Shown here one piece after another: positions 5,823 to 44,155 of a DNA stretch of 44,255 nt. Every line of letters begins with the position of its first letter. Position 1 is the stretch's first letter. Position numbers and translations under genes: made by a program. This DNA is from Actinomycetes bacterium (GTDB lineage Bacteria > Actinomycetota > Acidimicrobiia > Acidimicrobiales > Palsa-688). The DNA lies in the NCBI GenBank assembly GCA_021850325.1, contig JAJZMF010000039.1, forward strand, positions 1 through 44,255. Reading direction: 5' to 3'. The notes under the pieces are model-generated. The model was not told the origin of the DNA and made no database searches. It saw only the letters and a list, made by a program, of their open reading frames with translations.

Positions 5823-5896
5823 TGGAGGTGACCGGATTTGAACCGGCGACTTCTACGATGCGAACGTAGCGCTCTTCCGGGCTGAGCTACACCCCC
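5823..5896 (-). tRNA. tRNA-Ala (anticodon CGC)
   Basis: The cloverleaf is complete in 74 bases. The acceptor GGGGGTG (5896-5890) pairs with CACCTCC (5830-5824) and contains the G3:U70 wobble that marks alanine tRNAs. The anticodon stem CTACG/CGTAG encloses the loop TTCGCAT, giving anticodon CGC for codon GCG. The T arm CGCCGG/CCGGTC encloses TTCAAAT, and A73 is the discriminator base. The terminal CCA is not encoded. Confidence 0.95.
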
Positions 5897-7392: not shown

Positions 7393-8199
7393 TCAGTTCT
7401 CCTGTGAGCCCGGTTGGGCGGGGGCCTTGAACCGGCTGGGGTCGGACACCGTGCCGGTGGTCATCAGCTCCACGACGCTCTGGCGGTCGTAATTGGACAC
7501 CGGCCCCTGGGACACCATGTGCCCGAGCCGAAGGACGGCGATACGGTCGGCAACCTCGAAGACGTCGTTGAGGTTGTGCGAGACCAGCATCACCCCGTAG
7601 CCCTGCTCGGCCAGGCGGCGGACCAGTCGCAGCACCATGGTCGTCTGGGCCACGCCGAGGGCGGCCGTCGGCTCGTCCAGGATCATGAGCTGGGAGTTCC
7701 ACAGCACCGCACGGGCCACGGCCACGGACTGGCGCTGGCCTCCGGAGAGCGACGAGACGGGCTGGCGGATCGAGCGCACGGTGGTGACCTGGAGGTCGGC
7801 CAGCGTGCGGCGGGCCGCCGTCTCCATCGGCCCCTCGTCAAGGGTGCGCAAGCGGGTCTTCTCCCGCCCGAGGAACATGTTCTGGACGATGTCCAGGTTG
7901 TCGCACAGGGCCAGGTCCTGGTAAACGGTTGCGATCCCGAGAGCGGCGGAGTCCTTGGGGGAGTTGATCTGGACCGGCTTGCCCCGCCAGTAGATCTGGC
8001 CCGCGTCGGGACCGTGGATACCCGAGATGGTCTTGATGGTGACGCTCTTGCCGGCACCGTTGTCACCGGCCAGCGCCGTGACCTCCCCGGCGGTGATGGT
8101 GAGGTCGATACCGCTCAGTGCCCTGACCGGCCCGAAGTGTTTTTCGACCCCGCGTAGTTCGAGCAGTGGCTGCCCACGCTCGAGCAAGCCCTCAGGCAT
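7393..8199 (-). CDS. Sugar ABC transporter ATP-binding protein, single-domain (XylG/FrcA-like)
   Basis: The 268-residue ATPase shows Walker A GDNGAGKS at 45-52, Q-loop VYQDLALCDNL, signature LSGGQRQSVAV, Walker B LMILDEPTAALG and H-loop LVSHN. It belongs to the carbohydrate-uptake CUT2 group, whose members usually carry two ABC domains in one protein of about 500 residues. Here only one is present, as in FrcA-type systems. It should form a homodimer, or pair with another single domain, on the permease encoded three bases downstream. The residue pattern CDNLxxxxNxFLGRE is shared with the ABC domain of the kinase fusion at 10728-13157, suggesting close paralogy. An RNA hairpin lies in the 261-base gap upstream. 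Confidence 0.93.
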   Translation of the reverse strand: MPEGLLERGQPLLELRGVEKHFGPVRALSGIDLTITAGEVTALAGDNGAGKSVTIKTISGIHGPDAGQIYWRGKPVQINSPKDSAALGIATVYQDLALCDNLDIVQNMFLGREKTRLRTLDEGPMETAARRTLADLQVTTVRSIRQPVSSLSGGQRQSVAVARAVLWNSQLMILDEPTAALGVAQTTMVLRLVRRLAEQGYGVMLVSHNLNDVFEVADRIAVLRLGHMVSQGPVSNYDRQSVVELMTTGTVSDPSRFKAPAQPGSQEN

Positions 8200-8460: not shown

Positions 8461-9657
8461 TCAGGCCTTGATGCCAGCTGCCTTGCAGGCCGCCGCCGAA
8501 GCGTAGGGAGCTGCGCACAGCTGCGCCGAAGGCACGAACTTGTCAGCGATGACAGTGCTGTTCATGTTCTTGGCAGTGACCCACTCCGGGGTCAGCAGCA
8601 CGGACTTGACCTGGACGTGCTTGACCGAGTCCAGCGTGGTGCCGTTCACCAGCGCAGCCGGAGGCGTCATGTGGGCACGGGCGTAGATGGCCAGAGCCGC
8701 AGCCGCCTGGGCCTCGAGGTAGATCGGCTTGTACACGGTCCCGCACTGGTAACCGGTGAGGATGTTGCCGAGGCCCGTCAGCGTGGCGTCCTGGCCGGTG
8801 ACCGGGAACGACTTCGGCTTGATGCCCTTGCTCTGGAGGTACTTGATGATGGGAGCGCCGTTCTCGTCGTTCGGCATCAGCACGGCGTTCATGTTGGCAT
8901 GGGCCGTGAACTGCTGCTGGAACTCGGTCAGGGCGACGCTGGGCGTCCAGGTACCGGCGGGCTGGCCGACATCGACGTACTTGCCGGACTTGAACAGCGG
9001 GTTGAGCACCGACATGTAGCCGTTGTAGAAGAGCGTGGCGTTGTTGTCGGTCGGGGCGCCCCGCATGACCAGCACCTGAGGCTTGCTCACGTGCCAGGCG
9101 TTGACGCAGCTCACCAGGCCCTGGCCGAGCAACTGGCCGACCCGCACGTTGTTGAAGCTGACGTAATAGTTGCGCACGCCACCCAGCGTCAGGCGGTCGT
9201 AGTCGATCGTCTGCACACCGTGGGCCTTGGCGTAGGCCTCGATCTTGGCGCCGACACCGGAGTCCAGCGGGTCCATGATGAGGACGCTGGCGCCCTTGGT
9301 GATGTCAGCCTGGGCCTGGGAGAACTCAGTGGCGTCGCTGCCGTGGGCGTTGACCACGCTGAACTGCGAGGGGCTGAGCCCGGCCTTCTCGAGGGCCATG
9401 GTGAGGTACGGCGCGTCGAACTCGACGTAGCGGGTGGAGGAGACGGTGTCGGGCAGGATGACGCCGATGCTCCCCTTGCCCTTGGCTGTGATCGCCTTGA
9501 GCTGCGCCATGGTCGTGAAGTTGCGGTTGAAGGAGCTGGCGGTGAGCCCCGAGGGGGCAGCCGATGCTGCGCCCACCTGGCCGACCAGGGCGCCCACCAT
9601 GGCGGTCACGGCAACCGATGCCGAAGCCAGGCTGCCGGCCTTCTTGGTAATTTTCAT
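8461..9657 (-). CDS. Sugar ABC transporter substrate-binding protein (XylF-like)
   Basis: The 398-residue protein has a Sec-type signal: KITKK, a hydrophobic core and an ASAA cleavage region near residues 31-34. No lipobox cysteine is present. The mature part is a periplasmic-binding-protein type I fold: GSIGVILPDTVSSTRY, AQADITKGASVLIMDPLDSGVGAKIEAY, VQTIDYDRLTLGGVRNYYVSF, VMRGAPTDNNATLFYNGY and KSFPVTGQDATLTGLGNILTGYQ. The phrases DYDRL and GQDA are typical of xylose-binding proteins. AAGGGG lies seven bases before the ATG. Being first in the transporter part, it likely has its own promoter in the 369-base gap upstream. With no lipid anchor it may bind the envelope by other means or be partly secreted. 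Confidence 0.9.
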   Translation of the reverse strand: MKITKKAGSLASASVAVTAMVGALVGQVGAASAAPSGLTASSFNRNFTTMAQLKAITAKGKGSIGVILPDTVSSTRYVEFDAPYLTMALEKAGLSPSQFSVVNAHGSDATEFSQAQADITKGASVLIMDPLDSGVGAKIEAYAKAHGVQTIDYDRLTLGGVRNYYVSFNNVRVGQLLGQGLVSCVNAWHVSKPQVLVMRGAPTDNNATLFYNGYMSVLNPLFKSGKYVDVGQPAGTWTPSVALTEFQQQFTAHANMNAVLMPNDENGAPIIKYLQSKGIKPKSFPVTGQDATLTGLGNILTGYQCGTVYKPIYLEAQAAAALAIYARAHMTPPAALVNGTTLDSVKHVQVKSVLLTPEWVTAKNMNSTVIADKFVPSAQLCAAPYASAAACKAAGIKA

Positions 9658-10026
9658 GCTTTATCCCCTTTGCCACACAAGATGTGGAGCGAGTACCGGA
9701 TGTCCGCGTCGCGTCGAGAACGGGCGCACAAAGGGGGACGCAACTTGGCACGCCCCCTGTCCTGCCCCCGCACACCTTCTCGGCATGCGCTCGACGTTGC
9801 CGGCCGGAGTGTTTTCGGTCAGCTCCGGCTGGGGAGAAGCTACGTCTGCATCTGTGAACGCGTGCGTGAACAGACGGCGAAGACTGTTAATAATCCATGA
9901 AGAGAGTGTGAACGCCGGCTGGGAGCGCCCAGGGGACAGAGGACCACCGCGGCCAGCAGGAACGGCGGACAGCCCTTCTGAGCTGCACTTCCTCCCATGC
10001 CGGGCGGGTGCTCGAGCGGGTGGCGT
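9658..10026 (-). promoter_or_regulatory. Upstream region of the sugar transporter genes with repeated GTGAAC boxes
   Basis: No gene is visible. Three copies of GTGAAC (minus strand GTTCAC) occur at 9854-9859, 9866-9871 and 9908-9913. The first two are 12 bases apart, roughly one helical turn. Direct hexamer repeats at this spacing suit an OmpR/KdpE-type regulator, and one is encoded immediately upstream. A TTATTAA-containing segment at about 9886-9892 is the most AT-rich part and could be a -10 region. Assignment to that regulator is inference. Confidence 0.4.
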
Positions 10027-10731
10027 TCAGCCCGGGACGAAGCGGTAGCCGGCTCTGGGCTGGGTCACGATCACCGGCGGCCCGCCGCCGCTTTCCAGCT
10101 TTGCCCGCAGCCGGCGCACATAGACGCGCACGTACTCGGTCTCCGTGGCGTAGCCGGGCCCCCACACACGGCGCAGGAGCTGGGCATGGGTCAACAGTTT
10201 GCCCCGGTTCACGGCCAGTTCACGCAGCAGGGAGAACTCCGTGGGCGTCAGGTGCACCACCTCCCCCGCCTTGGTCACCAGGCGCATCTCCAGGTCCACG
10301 ACCAGGTCGCCCACCTCTATGCGCAGAGGGGCGGCCTCGACCGGTTCGGCCGGCCGGGTACGGCGCAGGGTGGCAGTGATGCGGGCCAGGAGCTCCTCGA
10401 TGCCGAAGGGCTTGGTCATGTAGTCGTCGGCCCCGAAGTTGAGGGCGGCCACCTTGTCGTGCTGGCCCCCTCGGGCAGAGACCACGATTATGCCCACCGC
10501 ACTGCGCTCGCGCATCTCCCGGCACAGTTCGAACCCGTCGGCGTCGGGGAGCATGAGGTCCAGGAGCACTATGTCGGGCGACTCGGTCTCCAGCAACTGG
10601 AGGGCGTTGGAACCGTCGGTGGAGGTACAGGTGTCGTAACCCCGCACGGTGAGGTTGCTGCGGATGAGGTCGACGATGTTGGGGTCGTCCTCCACCAGGA
10701 GGGCCTTGGTCCGCTTGTCGGCTGTTGTCAT
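10027..10731 (-). CDS. OmpR-family response regulator (KdpE-like)
   Basis: The 234-residue protein has a receiver domain with acidic pocket EDD near residue 15, phosphoacceptor D58 in VLLDLMLPD and conserved K107 in MTKPFG. A winged-helix DNA-binding domain follows (LTPTEFSLLRELAVNRGKLLTHAQLLRRVWG, TEYVRVYVRRLRAKLE). The recognition-helix region TETEYVRVYVRRLR is the KdpE type. Its ATG overlaps the stop of the kinase fusion gene as ATGA, so the two are a coupled two-component pair. The transporter genes follow on the same strand, and repeated GTGAAC boxes upstream of them are candidate targets. Potassium control is possible from the KdpE likeness, but no kdp genes are present. Confidence 0.93.
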   Translation of the reverse strand: MTTADKRTKALLVEDDPNIVDLIRSNLTVRGYDTCTSTDGSNALQLLETESPDIVLLDLMLPDADGFELCREMRERSAVGIIVVSARGGQHDKVAALNFGADDYMTKPFGIEELLARITATLRRTRPAEPVEAAPLRIEVGDLVVDLEMRLVTKAGEVVHLTPTEFSLLRELAVNRGKLLTHAQLLRRVWGPGYATETEYVRVYVRRLRAKLESGGGPPVIVTQPRAGYRFVPG

Positions 10732-13157
10732 GCCACGTTGTCCCCCGGCCCCTCGACAGGGATCTCGACCAGGAACGAGGCTCCAGGTCGGCCCGTCTCC
10801 AACGAGATGCGGCCTCCGTGGGCCAACACGATACCGCGGGCGATCGAGAGCCCCAGGCCCGCCCCCGGGGCACCCGTCGTGCCCCGGGCCTGGGGGACGA
10901 ACAACTGGGCCTGCAGCTCCTCGGGTATGCCCCTCCCGTCGTCCGAGACCCTCACCGAGACCGTGTCCTCCCCCTGGGCCACCTCCACCCGGACGCGTAC
11001 CTCGGGCTGGTTGTGGCGCACGGCGTTGTCGAGCAGGTTCACGAAGACCTGTTCCAGGCGGTCATGGTCGGCCCACACCGGCGCCATCCCCGCCGGGCAG
11101 CTCACCTGGACGTTGGGCACCCGGTCGGGGGGCAGCACGGCCACCGCGGCCTCGATGACCAGGGGCAGGTCGCACCAGTCGCACTGCAGGCGCAGCAGGC
11201 CGCTCTCGATGGCGGAGAAGTCGAGGAGGTCGCCCACCAGCCGGCCCAGCCGGGCCGACTCCCCGGCGATCCGGTTCAGGAAGCGCTCCTGGCTCTCGCC
11301 GTCCCAGGTGACGTCGGAAGCCAGCAGGCTGCTGGCGTAACCCCGGATGGCCGTGAGCGGGGTACGCAGCTCATGGCTCAGGCGGGACAGGAAGTCCCTC
11401 TGCAACTGATGGGAGCGGCGAAGGGCGGCCGCCTGCTGATGGGCCTGCTCGGCTTCGTCCCGTTCCAGGGCCAGCCTGACCGAATGCGCGGCGTCGCCCA
11501 GGAGGGCAACCGCGTCGTCAGGGACCTCGCTCTCACCCCAACGGGCGATGAGGGCCGCTCTCCCCCCCGGGGCATCGAAGGTGGTGGCGATCGTGCTGGC
11601 TGCGGGCGGCCTCGCCAGCTCCAGGGGACCTGAGTGGGCGTGGGCCAGCGCCGCCACCGCGTCCCGCCCGTCCCGGCCCGTGGGTTCCAGGTGCGCCCGG
11701 TTGAGCTGGTCCACGCAGGCACCGCACCGGGCCGCGCCTCCGGGCGGTTTGAGCCAGAGCTCCACCTCTGCCGCCTTCAGGCCCCGCCGCAGGGACTGTA
11801 AGGCCAGGAGCAGGCCGGTCGACACCGGCTCCGGCCCGGCCAGGGTCTCCAGTACCTCGCGGATGGTCTCCAGTACCCGGTTGCGAGCCGTCACCTCCCC
11901 GAAGAGCTGGTCACGCTCGATGGTCCCCGCCGCGTAACCGGCGTAGAGCGACACCAGGTCCATCTCGTCCCGATGGGGCCGCCCCACGAAAGGCTGGCAG
12001 CCCGTGATGACCCCGATGAGGCCACTGGGCCCGATCAGGGGTACCGCCCAGGAGCTGCGGATACCACCGCGGCGGGCCACAGCGGCGAAGGCAGCCCACT
12101 CCGGGCTGGCGCTGACGTCCTCGGTCACCTGGAGCCGCCCGCTCATGGCCACCGCACCCATGGGCCCTCCTCCGGGGCCGACCGGGACGGCTGCCCAGGC
12201 CTCCATGACCTCGGGAGGCAGGCCGGCCGCAGCGACCAGGCGCAACGAGCCCTCCTCCAGCAGGTGAACGCACAGCTGCTCGATGCTCAGTGCCGAGCCG
12301 AGCGCAGAGACGATGAGGGGCAGGCTGGAGCGCGAGCGGGCCGAAGCCAGCTGGTCCACCAGGTTCTGGAGGCGGTTCAGCTGGTGACGGGCACTGGCAT
12401 CGGGCGCATGCCCTGACATGATCGCCACCACGTCGGCCGGGTGGGCGTCCTCGGGGGCAAGGTTGGCTGCCACCCGGCCCCGGTGCAGGACCAGGATGCG
12501 GTCGGCCAGGTGGAAGACCTGCTCGATGTCGTGGGAGACCAGGACGACCGTGGTCCCGTTTGCCTTGAGCCGCCCGATCAGTTGCTCCACCTGGCGGGCT
12601 TCCTGGACCCCCAGGGAGGCGGTCGGTTCGTCGAGCACCAGTATGCGGGGCCGGCTCTGCATGGCCCGGGCGACGGCAAGGAGCTGGCGCTGCCCGGTCG
12701 ACAGGGCCCGAACGGTGCGCACCGCGGAGAGCCTGATCCCGTAGGAAGCCAGCACCTCCTGAGCCTCCAGGGCAGCCCTCGCCTCGGATATGAAGACCCG
12801 GGAGCGCTCGCGCCCGAGGAACAGGTTCTCGGCCACGCCCAGGTTGTCGCACATGGCAGCGTCCTGCCACACAACGGCCAACCCGCTGGTCGCCGCGCCG
12901 GCGTTGGAGCGGACCCGGGCCCCATCGATGGTCACCTCGCCCGCACTGGGCCCGATGTCACCCGCTATGCAGCGCACCAGGGTCGACTTGCCCGCCCCGT
13001 TCTCACCGGTCAGGGCCACCAATTGGCCGGGCCAGACGTCGAAGCTCACCCCGCTGAGCACGGTCAGCTCCCCGAAGGACACCGAGAGCTGCCTCACCTG
13101 CAACAAAGGATGGGTGCCGTCGGCCACGGCCTCTGGGGAGAGAGCGGTCAGCACCAT
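10728..13157 (-). CDS. Fusion of an ABC-type ATPase with a GAF-containing sensor histidine kinase
   Basis: Domains of the 809-residue protein in order: a full sugar-type ABC ATPase at about 17-250, with Walker A GENGAGKST (51-59), Q-loop Q98, signature LSTGQ (152-156), Walker B ILVLDEP (172-178) and H-loop H209; a GAF-like domain at about 275-415; a second degenerate GAF-like region at about 430-565; a HisKA domain with H595 in SHELRTPL; and a HATPase with N-box VNLLDNAVRH, G1 SDDGRGIP and G2 GAGLGLSIARG. All catalytic residues of both ATPases are intact. No transmembrane helix is obvious, so it is cytosolic or docks on a membrane partner. It is coupled to the response regulator downstream, then the sugar importer. 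I infer that the ABC domain contacts the importer permease and couples transport to phosphorylation. No ribosome binding site precedes the ATG. Confidence 0.92.
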   Translation of the reverse strand: MVLTALSPEAVADGTHPLLQVRQLSVSFGELTVLSGVSFDVWPGQLVALTGENGAGKSTLVRCIAGDIGPSAGEVTIDGARVRSNAGAATSGLAVVWQDAAMCDNLGVAENLFLGRERSRVFISEARAALEAQEVLASYGIRLSAVRTVRALSTGQRQLLAVARAMQSRPRILVLDEPTASLGVQEARQVEQLIGRLKANGTTVVLVSHDIEQVFHLADRILVLHRGRVAANLAPEDAHPADVVAIMSGHAPDASARHQLNRLQNLVDQLASARSRSSLPLIVSALGSALSIEQLCVHLLEEGSLRLVAAAGLPPEVMEAWAAVPVGPGGGPMGAVAMSGRLQVTEDVSASPEWAAFAAVARRGGIRSSWAVPLIGPSGLIGVITGCQPFVGRPHRDEMDLVSLYAGYAAGTIERDQLFGEVTARNRVLETIREVLETLAGPEPVSTGLLLALQSLRRGLKAAEVELWLKPPGGAARCGACVDQLNRAHLEPTGRDGRDAVAALAHAHSGPLELARPPAASTIATTFDAPGGRAALIARWGESEVPDDAVALLGDAAHSVRLALERDEAEQAHQQAAALRRSHQLQRDFLSRLSHELRTPLTAIRGYASSLLASDVTWDGESQERFLNRIAGESARLGRLVGDLLDFSAIESGLLRLQCDWCDLPLVIEAAVAVLPPDRVPNVQVSCPAGMAPVWADHDRLEQVFVNLLDNAVRHNQPEVRVRVEVAQGEDTVSVRVSDDGRGIPEELQAQLFVPQARGTTGAPGAGLGLSIARGIVLAHGGRISLETGRPGASFLVEIPVEGPGDNVA

Positions 13158-13225: not shown

Positions 13226-14155
13226 TCAGTTGGCCTGCGCGAGGGCCAAGCTGGCGTAGCTGTCGAAGTCGCCGTATGCCAGGTCGTCGTCGGCGCCGCT
13301 GCCCTCCTGCCCGGGCCAGGAAGCGGGCGACGGCGCAGCCACTGCTGCCGGAGCAGCCTCCCCGGTCCAGCGGGGCGGTGCAGGGTGGGGCCTGCGCACC
13401 GGTGCCGGTGGCACGAAGCTGAGGGGACGAGGAGGCGCCACGTCGGGCCGAGACCTGGGCGCTGCGGCCAGGGGGCCGGGCACAAAGCCCCTCCCCCGGT
13501 TGACCTGGTCTGCGTACGCCTCCTGGTCGAACAGGTGCGGGCCTTGGACCTCGTACCGGTGGCCGGCGCCGTAGGGCTCAGGCTCCGCTTCGGTCGGCTC
13601 CAGCCACTCGGTCGGCCTGGACCGGCGCCTGGTTGCTTCGCCCTGGCGGGCCGCCGCCCGAGCCCGGCGGGGCGCCCGCGCCTCCCGGGGCACGCTGGCG
13701 GCAGGCCGGGCACCTGCGGCACGCACCAGGAGGAGCACGTAACCACCGAACGCCAGGTCGGCGACGACGTCGAGCCCGATGAGAGCGGTCGAACCGGTGA
13801 GCATGGCAAGTAGGAGGAGCACCACGGCCGCACCCCCCAGAGCCGAGAGCACGTCCCGCCGGCGCCGCCGCATAACCGCCCGGCGGTGGTTGGCCGCCGT
13901 AACCGCCAGGTGCTCGGCCAGGGGCAGCCCGGTCTCGGGGTTGCCCAGGCCGAGCTCCACCGCCCCGACCGCCGGCGCCGGGCGGGACGGTGCCATCCGG
14001 TTGGCCGGCGCCACCCGAGCGGGCGTGGCCTGGCGCAGCACGCGCAGCTCTCGACGGAACACGCCTATGGTGTCGGCGGTCGCCGGACGCCGGGTCCAGA
14101 GCCAATAGGCGAGGACTGCCACCCAGAGGCCTGCGACAAGAAGCTCAGTACCCAT
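13226..14155 (-). CDS. SepX/GlpR-like membrane protein, putative divisome component
   Basis: The protein has 309 residues from the ATG at 14155, seven bases after GGGGGAG; a TTG three bases earlier is less likely. It has an N-terminal helix (about 4-20), a soluble stretch of about 75 residues, an arginine cluster (RRAVMRRRRRD), two adjacent helices (about 103-145) and a long Pro/Ala/Arg-rich disordered tail. This layout and the neighbourhood of galU and molybdopterin genes match actinobacterial SepX (Rv0996), a division-associated protein. Primary sequence is too diverged to be certain. The kinase-fusion gene starts 68 bases downstream on the same strand, so some co-transcription is possible. 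Confidence 0.55.
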   Translation of the reverse strand: MGTELLVAGLWVAVLAYWLWTRRPATADTIGVFRRELRVLRQATPARVAPANRMAPSRPAPAVGAVELGLGNPETGLPLAEHLAVTAANHRRAVMRRRRRDVLSALGGAAVVLLLLAMLTGSTALIGLDVVADLAFGGYVLLLVRAAGARPAASVPREARAPRRARAAARQGEATRRRSRPTEWLEPTEAEPEPYGAGHRYEVQGPHLFDQEAYADQVNRGRGFVPGPLAAAPRSRPDVAPPRPLSFVPPAPVRRPHPAPPRWTGEAAPAAVAAPSPASWPGQEGSGADDDLAYGDFDSYASLALAQAN

Positions 14156-14241
14156 CAAGCAACTCCCCCGACTACCCCGGAACTTCCTAAGACGGTAGCC
14201 GGTACTGGTGCACCGATGGTGGATCCCCAGGTAAGCAAAAG

Positions 14242-14838
14242 CTAAAAACCGGTGCTGTCGAAGTCGCCAGGTCGTTCCCCGAGGTCTCCCCCGGTCCCCA
14301 CGAGGTGGTCGATGTCCTCTTCGACGGGCAGGGCCCGGTTGGGCTCAGCCATGCCGGTGGTCTCCCCGCGACGCCAGTTGCCGCTGCGGCCGCCGGTCTT
14401 CTCCCACAGGGCCAGATCCCCGATGACCATGCCCCTGTCGAAGGACTTGCACATGTCGTAGACGGTGAGGGCCGCAACCGAGCACGCGGTCAGCGCTTCC
14501 ATCTCGACACCGGTCCGGTCCACCGTCTCCACCTGTGTCTCCACCTCGACGTAGTCGTCACCGATGGTGAAATTGATCGTCACGGCGCCGACCAGCAGGG
14601 GGTGGCACAGCGGTATCAGGTTCGCCGCCTGCTTTGCCGCCTGGATCCCCGCCACCCGGGAGACGGCCAGGACATCACCCTTGGTTATGGCATTGCTGGC
14701 CACTTTGGCGGTGGTCTCCGGCTTCATGTGCACCCGGCAACGGGCGATCGCCCGGCGGTGAGTGGGCTCCTTGGGCGTCACGTCCACCATCCGCGCACGC
14801 CCCAAGGGATCGATGTGGGTCAGACCGCGTTCGGGCAC
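14242..14838 (-). CDS. moaC: Cyclic pyranopterin monophosphate synthase MoaC
   Basis: With MoaA it makes cyclic pyranopterin monophosphate, the first committed step of molybdenum cofactor synthesis. The family signatures are exact: THIDPLGRARMVDV, KGDVLAVSRVAGIQAAKQ, LIPLCHPL and VEMEALTACSVAALTVYDMCK, the last containing the catalytic Asp and Lys. I chose the GTG at 14838 because family members begin just before LTHxDxxGxARMVDV; the longer open frame upstream is not MoaC-like. At 198 residues it exceeds the usual 160 or so. A polar tail of about 40 residues after LALWEKTGGRSG carries many Asp and Glu. moaA lies upstream on the same strand. Confidence 0.95.
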   Translation of the reverse strand: MPERGLTHIDPLGRARMVDVTPKEPTHRRAIARCRVHMKPETTAKVASNAITKGDVLAVSRVAGIQAAKQAANLIPLCHPLLVGAVTINFTIGDDYVEVETQVETVDRTGVEMEALTACSVAALTVYDMCKSFDRGMVIGDLALWEKTGGRSGNWRRGETTGMAEPNRALPVEEDIDHLVGTGGDLGERPGDFDSTGF

Positions 14839-14903
14839 GGGCGCAAGTCTAGGTCCCCGCCGCCGGCAGGGGGGCCCGGCGGGCCCCGGGGCCCGCCAAC
14901 TGC

Positions 14904-15890
14904 TCAACCGCCGATCTGGCTCATACTGCGGGTGGGGCGCACGAAGGTGACCCGGCCGATGGCATGGCCCGCCCACTTGGCTGCTACCTCCGCCTCGATC
15001 GCCGCTGCCACCTCTTCGTCGGTGGCCCCGCCCCGCAGCAACGGCCGCAGGTCGCGCTCGGTGACCGAGAAGAGGCAGCTGCGCAGGGCACCTTCAGCCG
15101 TGAGACGGGCGCGGTCACAGTCCCCGCAGAAGGGCCGCGTCACGCTGGCGATGACCCCAACCGTGCCCCGGCCGTCCGAGTAGCGGAACCGTTCTGCGGG
15201 CTGGCTCCCCCTTGCCCCCATCGGCTCCAGTGCAAAGACCTCCTGGAGCCGGCTCAGCACCTCCTCGGCGGGGACCACCCGCTCCGCCGACCACTCCCCC
15301 GCGCCGTCCAGGGGCATGAACTCGATGAAGCGCACCTCCACTCCGAGCTCACGGCCCCATCGGGCCAGGTCGACCACCTCGTCGTCGTTGAAGCCCCGCA
15401 TCGTGACCGTGTTGACCTTCACCGGGTGCAGGCCCGCCTCCAGCGCCGCCTCGATGCCCTGTAGCACCTGGCCCAGCACATCACGGCCCGTCATGGCGGC
15501 GAAGCGCTCCGGTTGGAGGGAGTCGAGGGAGACCGTGACCCGGTGGAGGCCGGCCTGGGCCAGTGGGCGTGCCAGCCGGGCCAGGCTGGCCCCGTTGGTG
15601 GTCATGGACAGCTCCACGGGCAGAGCGGCCAACCGGCGCACCAGCTCGGGGAGGTGCGCCCGGGCGGTCGGCTCACCGCCGGTCAGGCGCACGCTCTGCA
15701 GCCCGAAGTGGTGGACGAAGATGGAGACGACCCGCTCGACCTCCTCGAAGGTGAGGATCTCCTCGCGGGGCAACCAGCGCATGTCCTCGGCCGGCATGCA
15801 GTACCGGCACCGGAAGTTGCAGCGGTCGGTGACCGAGACCCGCAGGTCGACGACCTGGCGGCCGAAGCTGTCAACTAGAGCCCGTGGCAC
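14904..15890 (-). CDS. moaA: GTP 3',8-cyclase MoaA (radical SAM)
   Basis: This 328-residue radical-SAM enzyme rearranges GTP to 3',8-cyclo-GTP, the substrate of MoaC. The SAM cluster motif CNFRCRYC has Cys24, Cys28 and Cys31. The second 4Fe-4S cluster is bound by cysteines in the C-terminal FCGDCDRARLTAEGALRSCLF, and the essential C-terminal glycine pair is present as the last two residues. Other conserved segments are VRLTGGEPTAR, VSLDSL and EFMPLDGAGEW. The start is a GTG at 15890 with GGAG five bases upstream. moaC follows 65 bases downstream, so the two form a small cofactor operon within the conserved sepX-moa-galU neighbourhood. Confidence 0.97.
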   Translation of the reverse strand: MPRALVDSFGRQVVDLRVSVTDRCNFRCRYCMPAEDMRWLPREEILTFEEVERVVSIFVHHFGLQSVRLTGGEPTARAHLPELVRRLAALPVELSMTTNGASLARLARPLAQAGLHRVTVSLDSLQPERFAAMTGRDVLGQVLQGIEAALEAGLHPVKVNTVTMRGFNDDEVVDLARWGRELGVEVRFIEFMPLDGAGEWSAERVVPAEEVLSRLQEVFALEPMGARGSQPAERFRYSDGRGTVGVIASVTRPFCGDCDRARLTAEGALRSCLFSVTERDLRPLLRGGATDEEVAAAIEAEVAAKWAGHAIGRVTFVRPTRSMSQIGG

Positions 15891-15951
15891 TGGTGCTCCA
15901 GGCTAACCCCATGTTCGGGCAACCGAACACCCCGGGCACGGGAGGCCACGC

Positions 15952-16833
15952 CTAGTGCTGGTCCTGGGCCAGACGCCGGACCAGGTACTGGCGGAAGGCC
16001 GGGCCCAGGTCCTCGCGCTCCAGGGCCAGCTCCACCGTCGCCTGCAGGTAGTCCAGCTTGTTGCCAACGTCGAAACGGCCGTCCCGGAAGGTGTACCCGT
16101 AAACGGGCTCCTGCTCCGCCATGACCTTGATGGCGTCCGTCAGTTGGATCTCGCCCCCCCTGCCGGGCTTGGTGGTGGCAAGCAGCTCGAAGATCCCCGG
16201 CCCGAACACGTACCGTCCCATCACGGCCAGGCGGGAGGGGGCCTCTTCCGCTGGCGGCTTCTCCACCAGGTCGTGGACCCGGACGATGTTGCCCGAGAGG
16301 GGCTCAACCGCAGCGCAGCCGTAGGACGAGATGTCCCTTTCCGCTACCTCCTTCAAGGCGATGACACTGTGCCCGTGCTCCTCGTAGGCGGCCAGCATCC
16401 CGGCCAGGATCCCTGAGCCGGGGTGCATGATGTCGTCGCCCAGCATGACCACGAAGGGCTCGCTGCCCACGTGCTCTGCGGCCACCGCCACAGCGTGGCC
16501 CAGCCCCTTGGGCTCGCCTTGGCGCACGTAGTGGATGTCCGCCATCTCCGCGATACGGCGCATCTCGGCCAGCTCGGCCTCCTTGCCCCCCTGCTCGAGG
16601 TAGTACTCGAGCTCGAACGAGCGGTCGAAGTGGTCCTCGAGCGTCCTCTTGCCCCGGCCGGTGATCACCAGGATGTCGGTGATGCCCACCGACACGGCCT
16701 CCTCCACCACGTACTGGATGGCCGGCTTGTCCACCAGGGGGAGCATCTCCTTGGGCTGCGCCTTGGTGGCCGGCAGGAAGCGGGTGCCCAAGCCGGCGGC
16801 AGGGATCACGGCCTTGCGTACTGCTTGGGGCAT
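15952..16833 (-). CDS. galU: UTP-glucose-1-phosphate uridylyltransferase GalU
   Basis: The 293-residue enzyme makes UDP-glucose from UTP and glucose-1-phosphate for cell-envelope and storage polysaccharides. Signature segments are AAGLGTRFLPATKAQPKEML (nucleotide loop and catalytic Lys region), VDKPAIQYVVEEAV, ILVITGRGKRTLEDHFD, YVRQGEPKGLGHAV, VMLGDDIM and YTFRDGRFDVGNKLDYL. The ATG at 16833 has AAGGAG nine bases upstream, so the longer frame beginning MLPKEIWQ is rejected. In mycobacteria galU sits in the same neighbourhood as the Ruc-type gene (here divergent, at 17077), the molybdopterin genes and sepX. Confidence 0.97.
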   Translation of the reverse strand: MPQAVRKAVIPAAGLGTRFLPATKAQPKEMLPLVDKPAIQYVVEEAVSVGITDILVITGRGKRTLEDHFDRSFELEYYLEQGGKEAELAEMRRIAEMADIHYVRQGEPKGLGHAVAVAAEHVGSEPFVVMLGDDIMHPGSGILAGMLAAYEEHGHSVIALKEVAERDISSYGCAAVEPLSGNIVRVHDLVEKPPAEEAPSRLAVMGRYVFGPGIFELLATTKPGRGGEIQLTDAIKVMAEQEPVYGYTFRDGRFDVGNKLDYLQATVELALEREDLGPAFRQYLVRRLAQDQH

Positions 16834-17025
16834 CTGCCAAATCTCCTTAGGAAGCACGGGCCACCGGGAGCGTTCGGTGGCTCACCGGGCCATCATGTTC
16901 TACCACCCTTGGCCACTTCCGATAACTGGGGGCACCACCGAGCCCGGAGGGCCGGCTGCGGCCCGGTCCACCTCGCGCCGTCCCTGGCCACCCTCGCCGT
17001 CAGGCCACGCTAGTACGGGAACGGG

Positions 17026-44078: not shown

Positions 44079-44155
44079 AGCGGGGTGGAGCAGTCAGGTA
44101 GCTCGTTGGGCTCATAACCCAGAGGTCGCTGGTTCAAATCCAGCCCCCGCCACCA
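44079..44155 (+). tRNA. Initiator tRNA-fMet (anticodon CAT)
   Basis: The cloverleaf is complete, 77 bases including an encoded CCA. The anticodon loop CTCATAA has CAT. The anticodon stem has the three consecutive G:C pairs (GGG/CCC) of initiators, and the D arm GGAGCAGTCAGGTAGCTC and T arm GCTGG-TTCAAAT-CCAGC match bacterial initiators. Base 1 is A and base 72 is C, an unpaired position as initiators require, but not the usual C1-A72. Confidence 0.95.

What the first reader, a model, noticed from the sequence alone, without database searches (positions are those of the whole stretch)
10728..13157. An ABC-type ATPase fused to a GAF-containing histidine kinase
One uninterrupted 809-codon frame joins a complete sugar-type ABC ATPase (Walker A, Q-loop, signature, Walker B and H-loop intact) to one or two GAF-like regions and a complete HisKA/HATPase kinase. 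Known transport-sensing systems such as BceS/BceAB and KdpD use separate transporter proteins or different sensor domains. I do not recall a described protein with this order. The design suggests that ATP binding or cycling at the ABC domain, perhaps docked on a permease, controls phosphorylation.
Basis: partly seen in the sequence, partly recalled or inferred. Interest (0 to 1): 0.88.

Follow-up and report, generated by a model that had tools for sequence, protein, structure and literature searches.

The report
Sensor kinase built on transporter motor
This bacterial protein joins the ATP-burning motor of a sugar-type importer to a signalling kinase, and the same unusual protein recurs in soil actinobacteria beside an importer that it probably switches on, so it may let a cell sense a nutrient by feeling its own transporter work.

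Summary
The fusion is real: window 10728-13157, minus strand, 809 aa: ABC ATPase, two GAF folds, HisKA, HATPase. It is no assembly accident: I found 61 distinct fusions, two in complete Conexibacter chromosomes. All 41 loci with at least 4.3 kb downstream have a CUT2-type binding protein and permease, 40 a separate ATPase. An OmpR-type regulator follows in 53 of 54. The fused ABC domains form one clade beside mainly single-domain CUT2 ATPases. Their permease-facing stretch is their best-conserved part, while catalytic residues decay in one clade. GAFs are dispensable: two proteins join ABC directly to the kinase. In L166 it is the only ABC gene found within 17.4 kb. Before the binding-protein gene lie conserved direct repeats: 44 of 48 gaps (0.28 expected from shuffles, 10 on the reverse strand); 27 show the complete form with a -10 box, none on the reverse strand. 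Best reading: a sensor kinase that docks on the importer's permease through a converted motor domain and switches on importer synthesis. Docking and signalling are inferred. My paper searches found no description.

The parts
10728..13157 (-). ABC ATPase - GAF - GAF - HisKA - HATPase fusion protein, 809 aa (P0001)
   Evidence: 61 distinct fusions
12402..13109 (-). ABC ATPase domain, residues 17-252, CUT2 type
   Evidence: Pfam; NCBIfam best hits are N-terminal halves of YtfR, AraG and the xylose ATPase, far below equivalog cut-offs; tree
12807..12884 (-). Q-loop and start of helical subdomain (residues 92-117), the surface that in ABC importers contacts the permease; most conserved stretch of the domain
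   Evidence: role of the region recalled from ABC transporter structures
11973..12332 (-). first GAF domain, about residues 276-395
   Evidence: Pfam, AlphaFold2 model
11538..11825 (-). second, degenerate GAF-like fold, about residues 445-540 (no Pfam match)
   Evidence: AlphaFold2 model; Foldseek ranks 1-2 are bacteriophytochromes over 643 and 683 columns, but with low TM-scores (0.27-0.32), so the domain arrangement is not matched
11199..11402 (-). HisKA (phosphoacceptor His595), residues 586-653
   Evidence: Pfam; H595 invariant in the 42 rows of A3
10752..11069 (-). HATPase_c, residues 697-802
   Evidence: Pfam
10027..10731 (-). OmpR/PhoB-type response regulator, ATG overlapping the kinase stop by 4 bases
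   Evidence: Pfam Response_reg + Trans_reg_C; junction; next to the fusion in 53 of 54 loci
9837..9902 (-). predicted operator/promoter: two pairs of TTMAY-type direct repeats and TANNNT at 11 nt
8461..9657 (-). periplasmic sugar-binding protein, XylF/ChvE-like, 398 aa
   Evidence: Pfam Peripla_BP_4; NCBIfam (below equivalog cut-offs)
7393..8199 (-). separate single-domain CUT2-type ATPase, 268 aa
6040..7389 (-). CUT2-type permease, GguB-like, 449 aa
   Evidence: Pfam BPD_transp_2; NCBIfam (below equivalog cut-off)

Best explanation
It is the sensor kinase of a two-component system whose input module is a converted ABC motor. A CUT2-type ATPase was fused, probably once, to a histidine kinase. 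The product still docks with its Q-loop/helical surface on the permease of the importer encoded beside it, probably in place of one or both ordinary ATPase subunits. Loading of the permease by sugar-bound binding protein, together with ATP binding, changes the position of the ABC domain. The helix that follows carries this, directly or through the GAFs, into the kinase dimer. The phosphorylated OmpR-type regulator then binds the direct repeats before the binding-protein gene and switches on the importer. SHOWN: the fusion, its recurrence, the gene order, one clade, motif patterns, the repeat pattern. INFERRED: docking, sensing of the transport state, direction of control, regulator-operator pairing. 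UNKNOWN: substrate (the binding protein is XylF/ChvE-like only), GAF ligand, stoichiometry.
For: (1) Neighbours: binding protein and permease in 41 of 41 loci with at least 4.3 kb downstream, an ATPase in 40 of 41, one of these (L161) of another class; regulator in 53 of 54 with at least 900 bp. The GTDB scan used two peptides of the kinase helix, not transporter genes, and 0 of 17 unfused kinases from that scan have binding protein, operon ATPase or permease by the same models in the DNA held; those 17 are all Burkholderiales by title, so this is not a matched control. (2) Origin: 61 fused ABC domains are one clade (SH-aLRT 95), beside a group of mainly single-domain CUT2 ATPases. (3) Permease-facing stretch 92-117 has the lowest mean entropy of the fused domain (0.84, against 1.38 around Walker A and 1.09 signature-Walker B) and is most often identical to the operon ATPase (0.61, against 0.57 and 0.48). 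(4) Walker A Lys, Q-loop Gln and Walker B Asp are invariant (61 of 61) but H-loop His is kept in 52, signature Ser in 55, catalytic Glu in 59, while the operon ATPases keep all six in 40 of 40. (5) ABC and kinase are the constant core: L101 and L105 have no GAF, and in the L105 model one 46-residue helix follows the ABC domain. (6) L166 has binding protein and permease but no second ABC match in 17.4 kb, and its fused domain has the catalytic motifs. (7) Direct repeats in 44 of 48 regulator-to-binding-protein gaps (0.28 expected), complete two-pair form with -10 in 27 (0.00 expected, 0 on the reverse strand). (8) Partial correlation of distances: ABC-permease 0.44 (5-95% 0.35..0.53), between binding protein-permease 0.50 and ATPase-permease 0.37; ABC-ATPase -0.06.
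Against: No protein contact, phosphorylation or DNA binding was measured or modelled; only monomers could be folded. The docking stretch is also the most conserved part of the operon ATPases (entropy 0.42), so common ancestry could leave the likeness. The correlations are weak evidence: ABC and HK, on one chain, give only 0.09, while pairs without known contact give 0.38 (ABC-RR, HK-ATPase), 0.35 (RR-SBP) and -0.42 (RR-permease). L166 is one MAG and another ATPase could act in trans (one with its own binding protein and permease lies on another contig). An importer of the same ATPase clade occurs without the fusion within 19 kb (L169). L085 has a fusion but no intact regulator or importer in 2.5 kb. 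Direct repeats were missed in 4 of 48 gaps and found on the reverse strand in 10 of 48.
Confidence: 0.6

Rival explanations
1. The ABC domain does not touch the permease. It is a cytosolic ATP/ADP sensor or nucleotide-controlled dimerisation device that sets kinase activity, with the GAFs sensing a metabolite; linkage to the importer reflects only what the regulator controls.
For: Tested ATP-binding residues are invariant while hydrolysis residues drift; no convincing transmembrane segment; kinase and regulator are complete.
Against: The permease-facing stretch would not need to be the best-conserved part of the domain, and it largely survives in members that lost the H-loop His; no other ABC gene was found beside the permease in L166; the domain is specifically of the CUT2 class.
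Confidence: 0.2
2. The fused protein is a working second ATPase of the importer (homodimer or heterodimer with the separate ATPase), and the kinase part mainly tunes transport rather than sensing it.
For: Most members keep the catalytic motifs; L166 has no other ABC match in the operon; the two loci of one genus, L161 and L177, have only an ATPase of another class.
Against: In the eight-member clade with Arg at the H-loop, five of eight also have altered signatures in the same polypeptide, which would damage both sites of a heterodimer; ABC-ATPase partial correlation about zero; an adjacent regulator and repeat operator point to transcriptional output.
Confidence: 0.12
3. An ordinary GAF-sensing cytosolic histidine kinase that carries a vestigial ABC domain.
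For: Foldseek ranks bacteriophytochromes (GAF-type folds plus kinase) first, though with low TM-scores.
Against: The GAF part, not the ABC domain, is what is shortened or lost: 2 of 61 have a 10-residue linker and 8 of 61 a linker of 124-192 residues; Walker A Lys, Q-loop Gln and Walker B Asp are invariant.
Confidence: 0.06
4. Artefact of assembly, frameshift or gene calling.
For: Nearly all loci are metagenome-assembled genomes (titles).
Against: 61 distinct fusions with the same domain order, two in complete Conexibacter chromosomes (NZ_CP097127, NZ_CP097128), and the same downstream gene in 53 of 54.
Confidence: 0.01

Closest known systems
Bce modules (BceAB ABC transporter with BceS histidine kinase and BceR)
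   Same: Kinase without its own sensing domain that reads an ABC transporter and raises transporter synthesis in a loop ('flux sensing'; PMC10314905 and PMC8534201, passages read).
   Different: BceS is a separate membrane kinase that contacts the permease BceB through its TM helices; the transporter handles peptide antibiotics. Here the kinase looks soluble, is fused to the ATPase, and the partner is a sugar-type importer.
Transporter-fused histidine kinases: SLC5/STAC kinases (CbrA, CrbS) and Amt5 (KsAmt5)
   Same: One polypeptide joins a transporter-derived module to a kinase (PMC7096432 abstract; PMC8534201 passage; PMC9100948 and PMC5715377 search listing only).
   Different: Those fuse the membrane carrier or channel itself; here the soluble ATP motor of an ABC importer is the fused module.
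CUT2 (RbsA/XylG/FrcA-like) importer ATPases
   Same: The ABC domain groups with this class and keeps its motifs.
   Different: Carries GAF and kinase domains; hydrolysis residues are lost in one clade.
ABC ATPases with C-terminal regulatory domains (MalK, MetN, OpuA CBS; recalled)
   Same: Regulatory module fused behind the ATPase.
   Different: Those modules regulate transport; here the added module is a complete histidine kinase with its own regulator.
XylFII-LytS and other binding-protein-dependent sugar kinases (recalled; only search listings seen)
   Same: Two-component control of a sugar ABC importer.
   Different: Sensing there is by a binding protein and a membrane kinase, not by an ATPase domain.

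Membership tests
Orthodox OmpR-paired histidine kinase (HisKA class) | HisKA with phosphoacceptor His, HATPase_c with N and G boxes, adjacent response regulator | tested here: met
   (H595, N711, D739, G741, G769 invariant in 42 rows)
CUT2 importer ATPase | ABC domain closest to RbsA/XylG-type ATPases | tested here: met
CUT2 importer ATPase | two ABC domains in one chain (recalled for classical RbsA/XylG) | tested here: not met
   one ABC domain only; its nearest relatives in the tree are mainly single-domain ATPases
CUT2 importer ATPase | complete hydrolysis motifs | tested here: inconclusive
   present in the window protein (signature LSTGQ); in the family H-loop His kept in 52 of 61, signature Ser in 55 of 61, catalytic Glu in 59 of 61
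CUT2 importer ATPase | assembles with a permease and drives transport | not testable with these tools
   only indirect evidence
Bce-type flux-sensing module | separate membrane-anchored kinase with two TM helices and BceAB-type transporter | tested here: not met
   no convincing TM segment; importer with binding protein
SLC5/STAC or Amt transporter-kinase fusions | fused membrane carrier or channel domain | tested here: not met
   Pfam shows ABC_tran, no membrane domain
KdpD | KdpD/USP N-terminal domains and TM region | tested here: not met
   none found by Pfam; NCBIfam KdpD matches only residues 558-803, 127 bits against a cut-off of 1123
OmpR/PhoB-type regulator and target promoter | winged-helix regulator with direct repeats about 11 bp apart before a -10 box (recalled) | tested here: inconclusive
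   regulator domains met; repeats in 44 of 48 gaps, complete form in 27; binding itself not tested

The most novel reading that the evidence does not exclude
A previously undescribed class of sensor in which the transporter's own ATP motor is the sensory domain: the kinase rides on the nucleotide-binding subunit, so the import cycle (or its arrested ATP-bound, substrate-loaded step) is converted directly into histidine phosphorylation, in the minimal Conexibacter form through one helix from ABC domain to phosphoacceptor and in L166 with the motor-kinase as the importer's only ATPase.
Probability: 0.4. Interest if true: 0.9.

Novelty: new variant of a known kind. Interest (0 to 1): 0.78.

Why it matters
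How bacteria sense transport activity rather than substrate concentration is known mainly from Bce modules and a few carrier-kinase fusions. Here sensing could be reduced to one soluble protein with natural variants (long, short or no GAF part; intact or decayed hydrolysis motifs; with or without a separate ATPase beside it) and a predicted operator. That would let one ask directly whether a kinase reads ATP binding, hydrolysis or docking of an ABC transporter.

Tried and rejected
Assembly artefact: rejected (61 fusions, two in complete chromosomes). Heterodimer of fused ABC with the operon ATPase as the main working form: disfavoured (both sites would be damaged in part of the H-to-Arg clade; partial correlation about zero). 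Substrate from neighbouring catabolic genes: no shared downstream gene among the few ORFs I tested; mixed hits such as MacB-like, glycosyl hydrolase 3, amino-acid permease, mannosyltransferase, so the sugar stays open. Riboswitch or other RNA family in the leader: no match at gathering thresholds, only two tRNAs in the window. First operator patterns were too strict: searches missed the window's own copy, whose second pair is spaced by 12 bp (one search hit one chance-like site inside the regulator gene); the strict N5 form was in 10 of 48 gaps and in 0 of 58 stretches of 400 bp before the fusion's ABC domain, and a relaxed N5 form in 32 of 48 gaps (0.025 expected from mononucleotide shuffles). 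The N5-6 pattern was loosened after I had seen seven close sequences and the list, so it is not a blind test; outside those seven it finds repeats in 37 of 41 gaps and the complete form in 21 of 41. Solved-structure searches: no PDB chain matched the GAF region by phmmer at E 0.01; the 60 of 544 matches of the full profile that were shown are ABC proteins. Paper searches for an ABC-ATPase/kinase fusion showed none in the titles and abstract starts listed; PMC1698476 was checked because of its term counts and its passages list separate E. coli genes; passages of PMC11109136 name other fusions, not this one. Dropped before counts: 7 truncated or frame-broken loci (L074, L084, L087-L091) and 17 unfused kinases; for the distance correlations also L161, L062, L092, L095 and loci without all six genes.
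Full report
WHAT IS THERE. The reported stretch holds one open frame on the minus strand, 809 aa, starting with ATG at 13157. Pfam finds ABC_tran, GAF, HisKA and HATPase_c above their cut-offs. The AlphaFold2 model made with 42 sequences (mean pLDDT 83.5, pTM 0.40) shows an ABC domain, a GAF fold at about 276-395, a helix 396-440, a second GAF-like fold at about 445-540 and a 64-residue helix (549-612) into the kinase dimerisation region. The low pTM means that the placing of the domains against each other is not known. Foldseek puts two bacteriophytochromes first (643 and 683 columns, but TM-scores of only 0.27-0.32); ABC ATPases fill most of the following rows. The kinase stop overlaps the start of an OmpR-type regulator by four bases. 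After a gap of about 370 bp follow a XylF/ChvE-like binding protein, a single-domain CUT2-type ATPase and a GguB-like permease. Upstream lie a gene with weak SepX/GlpR similarity and molybdenum-cofactor genes.

IS IT CONSERVED. In the window's own family, 14 of 25 genomes examined (own, genus, family) carry the fusion or its pieces (one, G013, is broken into frames; G007 matched with an ordinary kinase only). A scan of one genome per GTDB species with two peptides of the kinase helix, confirmed by tblastn with the GAF-to-HisKA region, gave 77 loci: 53 with the fusion in one frame, 7 truncated or frame-broken, and 17 unfused kinases. With the window and seven loci from the genome search this makes 61 distinct fusions; two more came later (L176, L177). 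Record titles name Acidimicrobiales, Streptosporangiaceae, Solirubrobacterales, Frankiales, Nakamurella and two complete Conexibacter chromosomes. One locus titled Melainabacteria (L064) may be a binning error; I did not test that. It is rare: 8 of 296 genomes of the class matched the GAF-region model (two of them are the window's own genome and its congener) and, by my reading of the rows, 4 of 396 of the phylum carry the fusion (85 had a match, the other 81 are ABC domains alone; only two candidates per genome were scored, so 4 is a lower bound).

NEIGHBOURS. Among 61 loci, 54 have at least 900 bp of downstream sequence and 53 of them have the regulator on the same strand next to the kinase; the exception is L085, which runs into riboflavin genes. 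Of 41 with at least 4.3 kb, 40 pass my filter for binding protein, ATPase and permease, 38 of them on the same strand; two (L079, L083) are convergent. The forty-first, L166, has binding protein and permease (187 bits, just under my cut of 200) but no separate ATPase: no other frame in its 17.4 kb matched my two ABC models even at E 10, and the next gene is an SRP54-type GTPase. Its fused ABC domain has the catalytic motifs. The same genome has another CUT2 set with its own ATPase elsewhere, so help in trans is not excluded. In L161 and L177, one genus, the ATPase near the usual binding protein and permease is of a different class and comes with its own permease (in L161 also its own binding protein). 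The 17 unfused kinases of the scan have no binding protein, operon ATPase or permease by the same models in the DNA held; by title they are all Burkholderiales, so they are a rough control only. Conversely an importer of the same ATPase clade exists without the fusion within 19 kb (L169).

ORIGIN AND MOTIFS. In a quick maximum-likelihood tree of 137 ABC domains the 61 kinase-fused ones form one clade (SH-aLRT 95), beside a group of mainly single-domain CUT2 ATPases (support of that group 80); 37 of 40 operon ATPases fall in one clade with one other ATPase. This was the quick method without bootstrap, and long branches were flagged. Walker A lysine, Q-loop glutamine and Walker B aspartate are invariant in 61 of 61. 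The H-loop histidine is kept in 52 (8 Arg, 1 Asn), the signature serine in 55, the catalytic glutamate in 59. The 40 operon ATPases keep all of these; one has Glu for the signature Gln. The eight H-to-Arg proteins are one clade in the tree (SH-aLRT 91), which includes the short-linker (124) and GAF-less forms and one long form; five of the eight also have altered signatures. Residues 92-117 (Q-loop and start of the helical subdomain), the region that in known importers meets the permease (recalled), have the lowest entropy of the fused domain (0.84) and the highest identity with the operon ATPase (0.61; next 0.57 for signature-Walker B), and the pattern largely survives in the H-to-Arg clade. 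The same stretch is also the most conserved part of the operon ATPases (0.42), so shared ancestry explains the likeness; its retention while the rest drifts only suggests use.

GAFs ARE OPTIONAL. By linker length, 51 of 61 have 270 residues or more between ABC and kinase, 3 have 173-192, 5 have 124 and 2 have 10. Pfam sees one GAF in L095 and none in L096, L101 and L105. In the last two the ABC domain runs into the kinase; the L105 model (mean pLDDT 83.9, pTM 0.54) has one helix, 232-277, after the ABC domain, though its confidence there is only about 60-71.

OPERATOR. In 48 loci with a usable gap between regulator and binding-protein gene, direct repeats of TTHAY type spaced 11-12 bp occur in 44, against 0.28 expected from dinucleotide shuffles; on the reverse strand they occur in 10, so shuffles understate the background. 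The complete form, two pairs and TANNNT 10-12 nt downstream, occurs in 27, against 0.00 expected and 0 on the reverse strand. The window copy is 9837-9902. The pattern was loosened after I had seen seven close sequences and the list; outside those seven it gives 37 of 41 and 21 of 41. Repeats of this spacing are typical of OmpR/PhoB regulators (recalled). That this regulator binds them is inference.

CO-EVOLUTION. For 39 loci, partial correlations of pairwise distances are 0.59 for kinase-regulator, 0.50 for binding protein-permease, 0.44 for fused ABC-permease, 0.37 for ATPase-permease and -0.06 for fused ABC-ATPase (medians of 300 subsamples). The first, second and fourth are known contacts by general knowledge, and the third fits docking. 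But ABC and kinase, on one chain, give only 0.09, and pairs without known contact give 0.38 (ABC-regulator, kinase-ATPase), 0.35 (regulator-binding protein) and -0.42 (regulator-permease), so this is only a hint.

MECHANISM. I think the fused ABC domain is a paralogue of the importer's ATPase that docks on the same permease and reports its state to the kinase, which through the regulator raises importer synthesis. Since the tested ATP-binding residues never change but hydrolysis residues do, the signal is more likely the docked, ATP-bound state than turnover. Whether substrate flux switches the kinase on or off cannot be told from sequence.

NOVELTY. Kinases that read ABC transporters (Bce; PMC10314905 and PMC8534201, passages read) and kinases fused to carriers or channels (CbrA, PMC7096432, abstract; Amt5 in PMC8534201, passage) are known. 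I saw no described kinase fused to an ABC ATPase in the listings, which cover open-licence PMC papers only. No PDB chain matched the GAF region by phmmer. I therefore call it a new variant of a known kind, with a case for more.

Noticed in passing
window 9837-9902 (-): Two-pair direct-repeat operator with -10 box before the binding-protein gene; at least one repeat pair in 44 of 48 loci.
   Followed up: yes
L166 (G563:C97): Operon with fused kinase, regulator, binding protein and permease but no separate ATPase gene found; an SRP54-type GTPase gene follows.
   Followed up: partly
L161 and L177 (one genus): A second CUT2 permease and ATPase of another class (in L161 also a binding protein) sit between the regulator and the usual binding protein and permease, which lack their own ATPase.
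   Followed up: partly
L101 and L105 (Conexibacter sp. DBS9H8, complete genome): Minimal form: ABC domain joined directly to the kinase, no GAF.
   Followed up: yes
L085: Fusion with no intact regulator or importer in 2.5 kb downstream and no match to the first GAF; may be a decaying copy.
   Followed up: partly
window 13226-16857 (-): MoaC, MoaA, a nucleotidyltransferase and a weak SepX/GlpR-like gene precede the fusion; the same order is seen in L029, L031, L032 and L033.
   Followed up: no
window 5823-5896 (-) and 44079-44152 (+): Two tRNA genes found by Rfam, the first just downstream of the permease.
   Followed up: no
L169 (G406): Importer of the same ATPase clade without the kinase fusion, beside TetR, MMPL and glycosyl hydrolase 12 genes.
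   Followed up: partly
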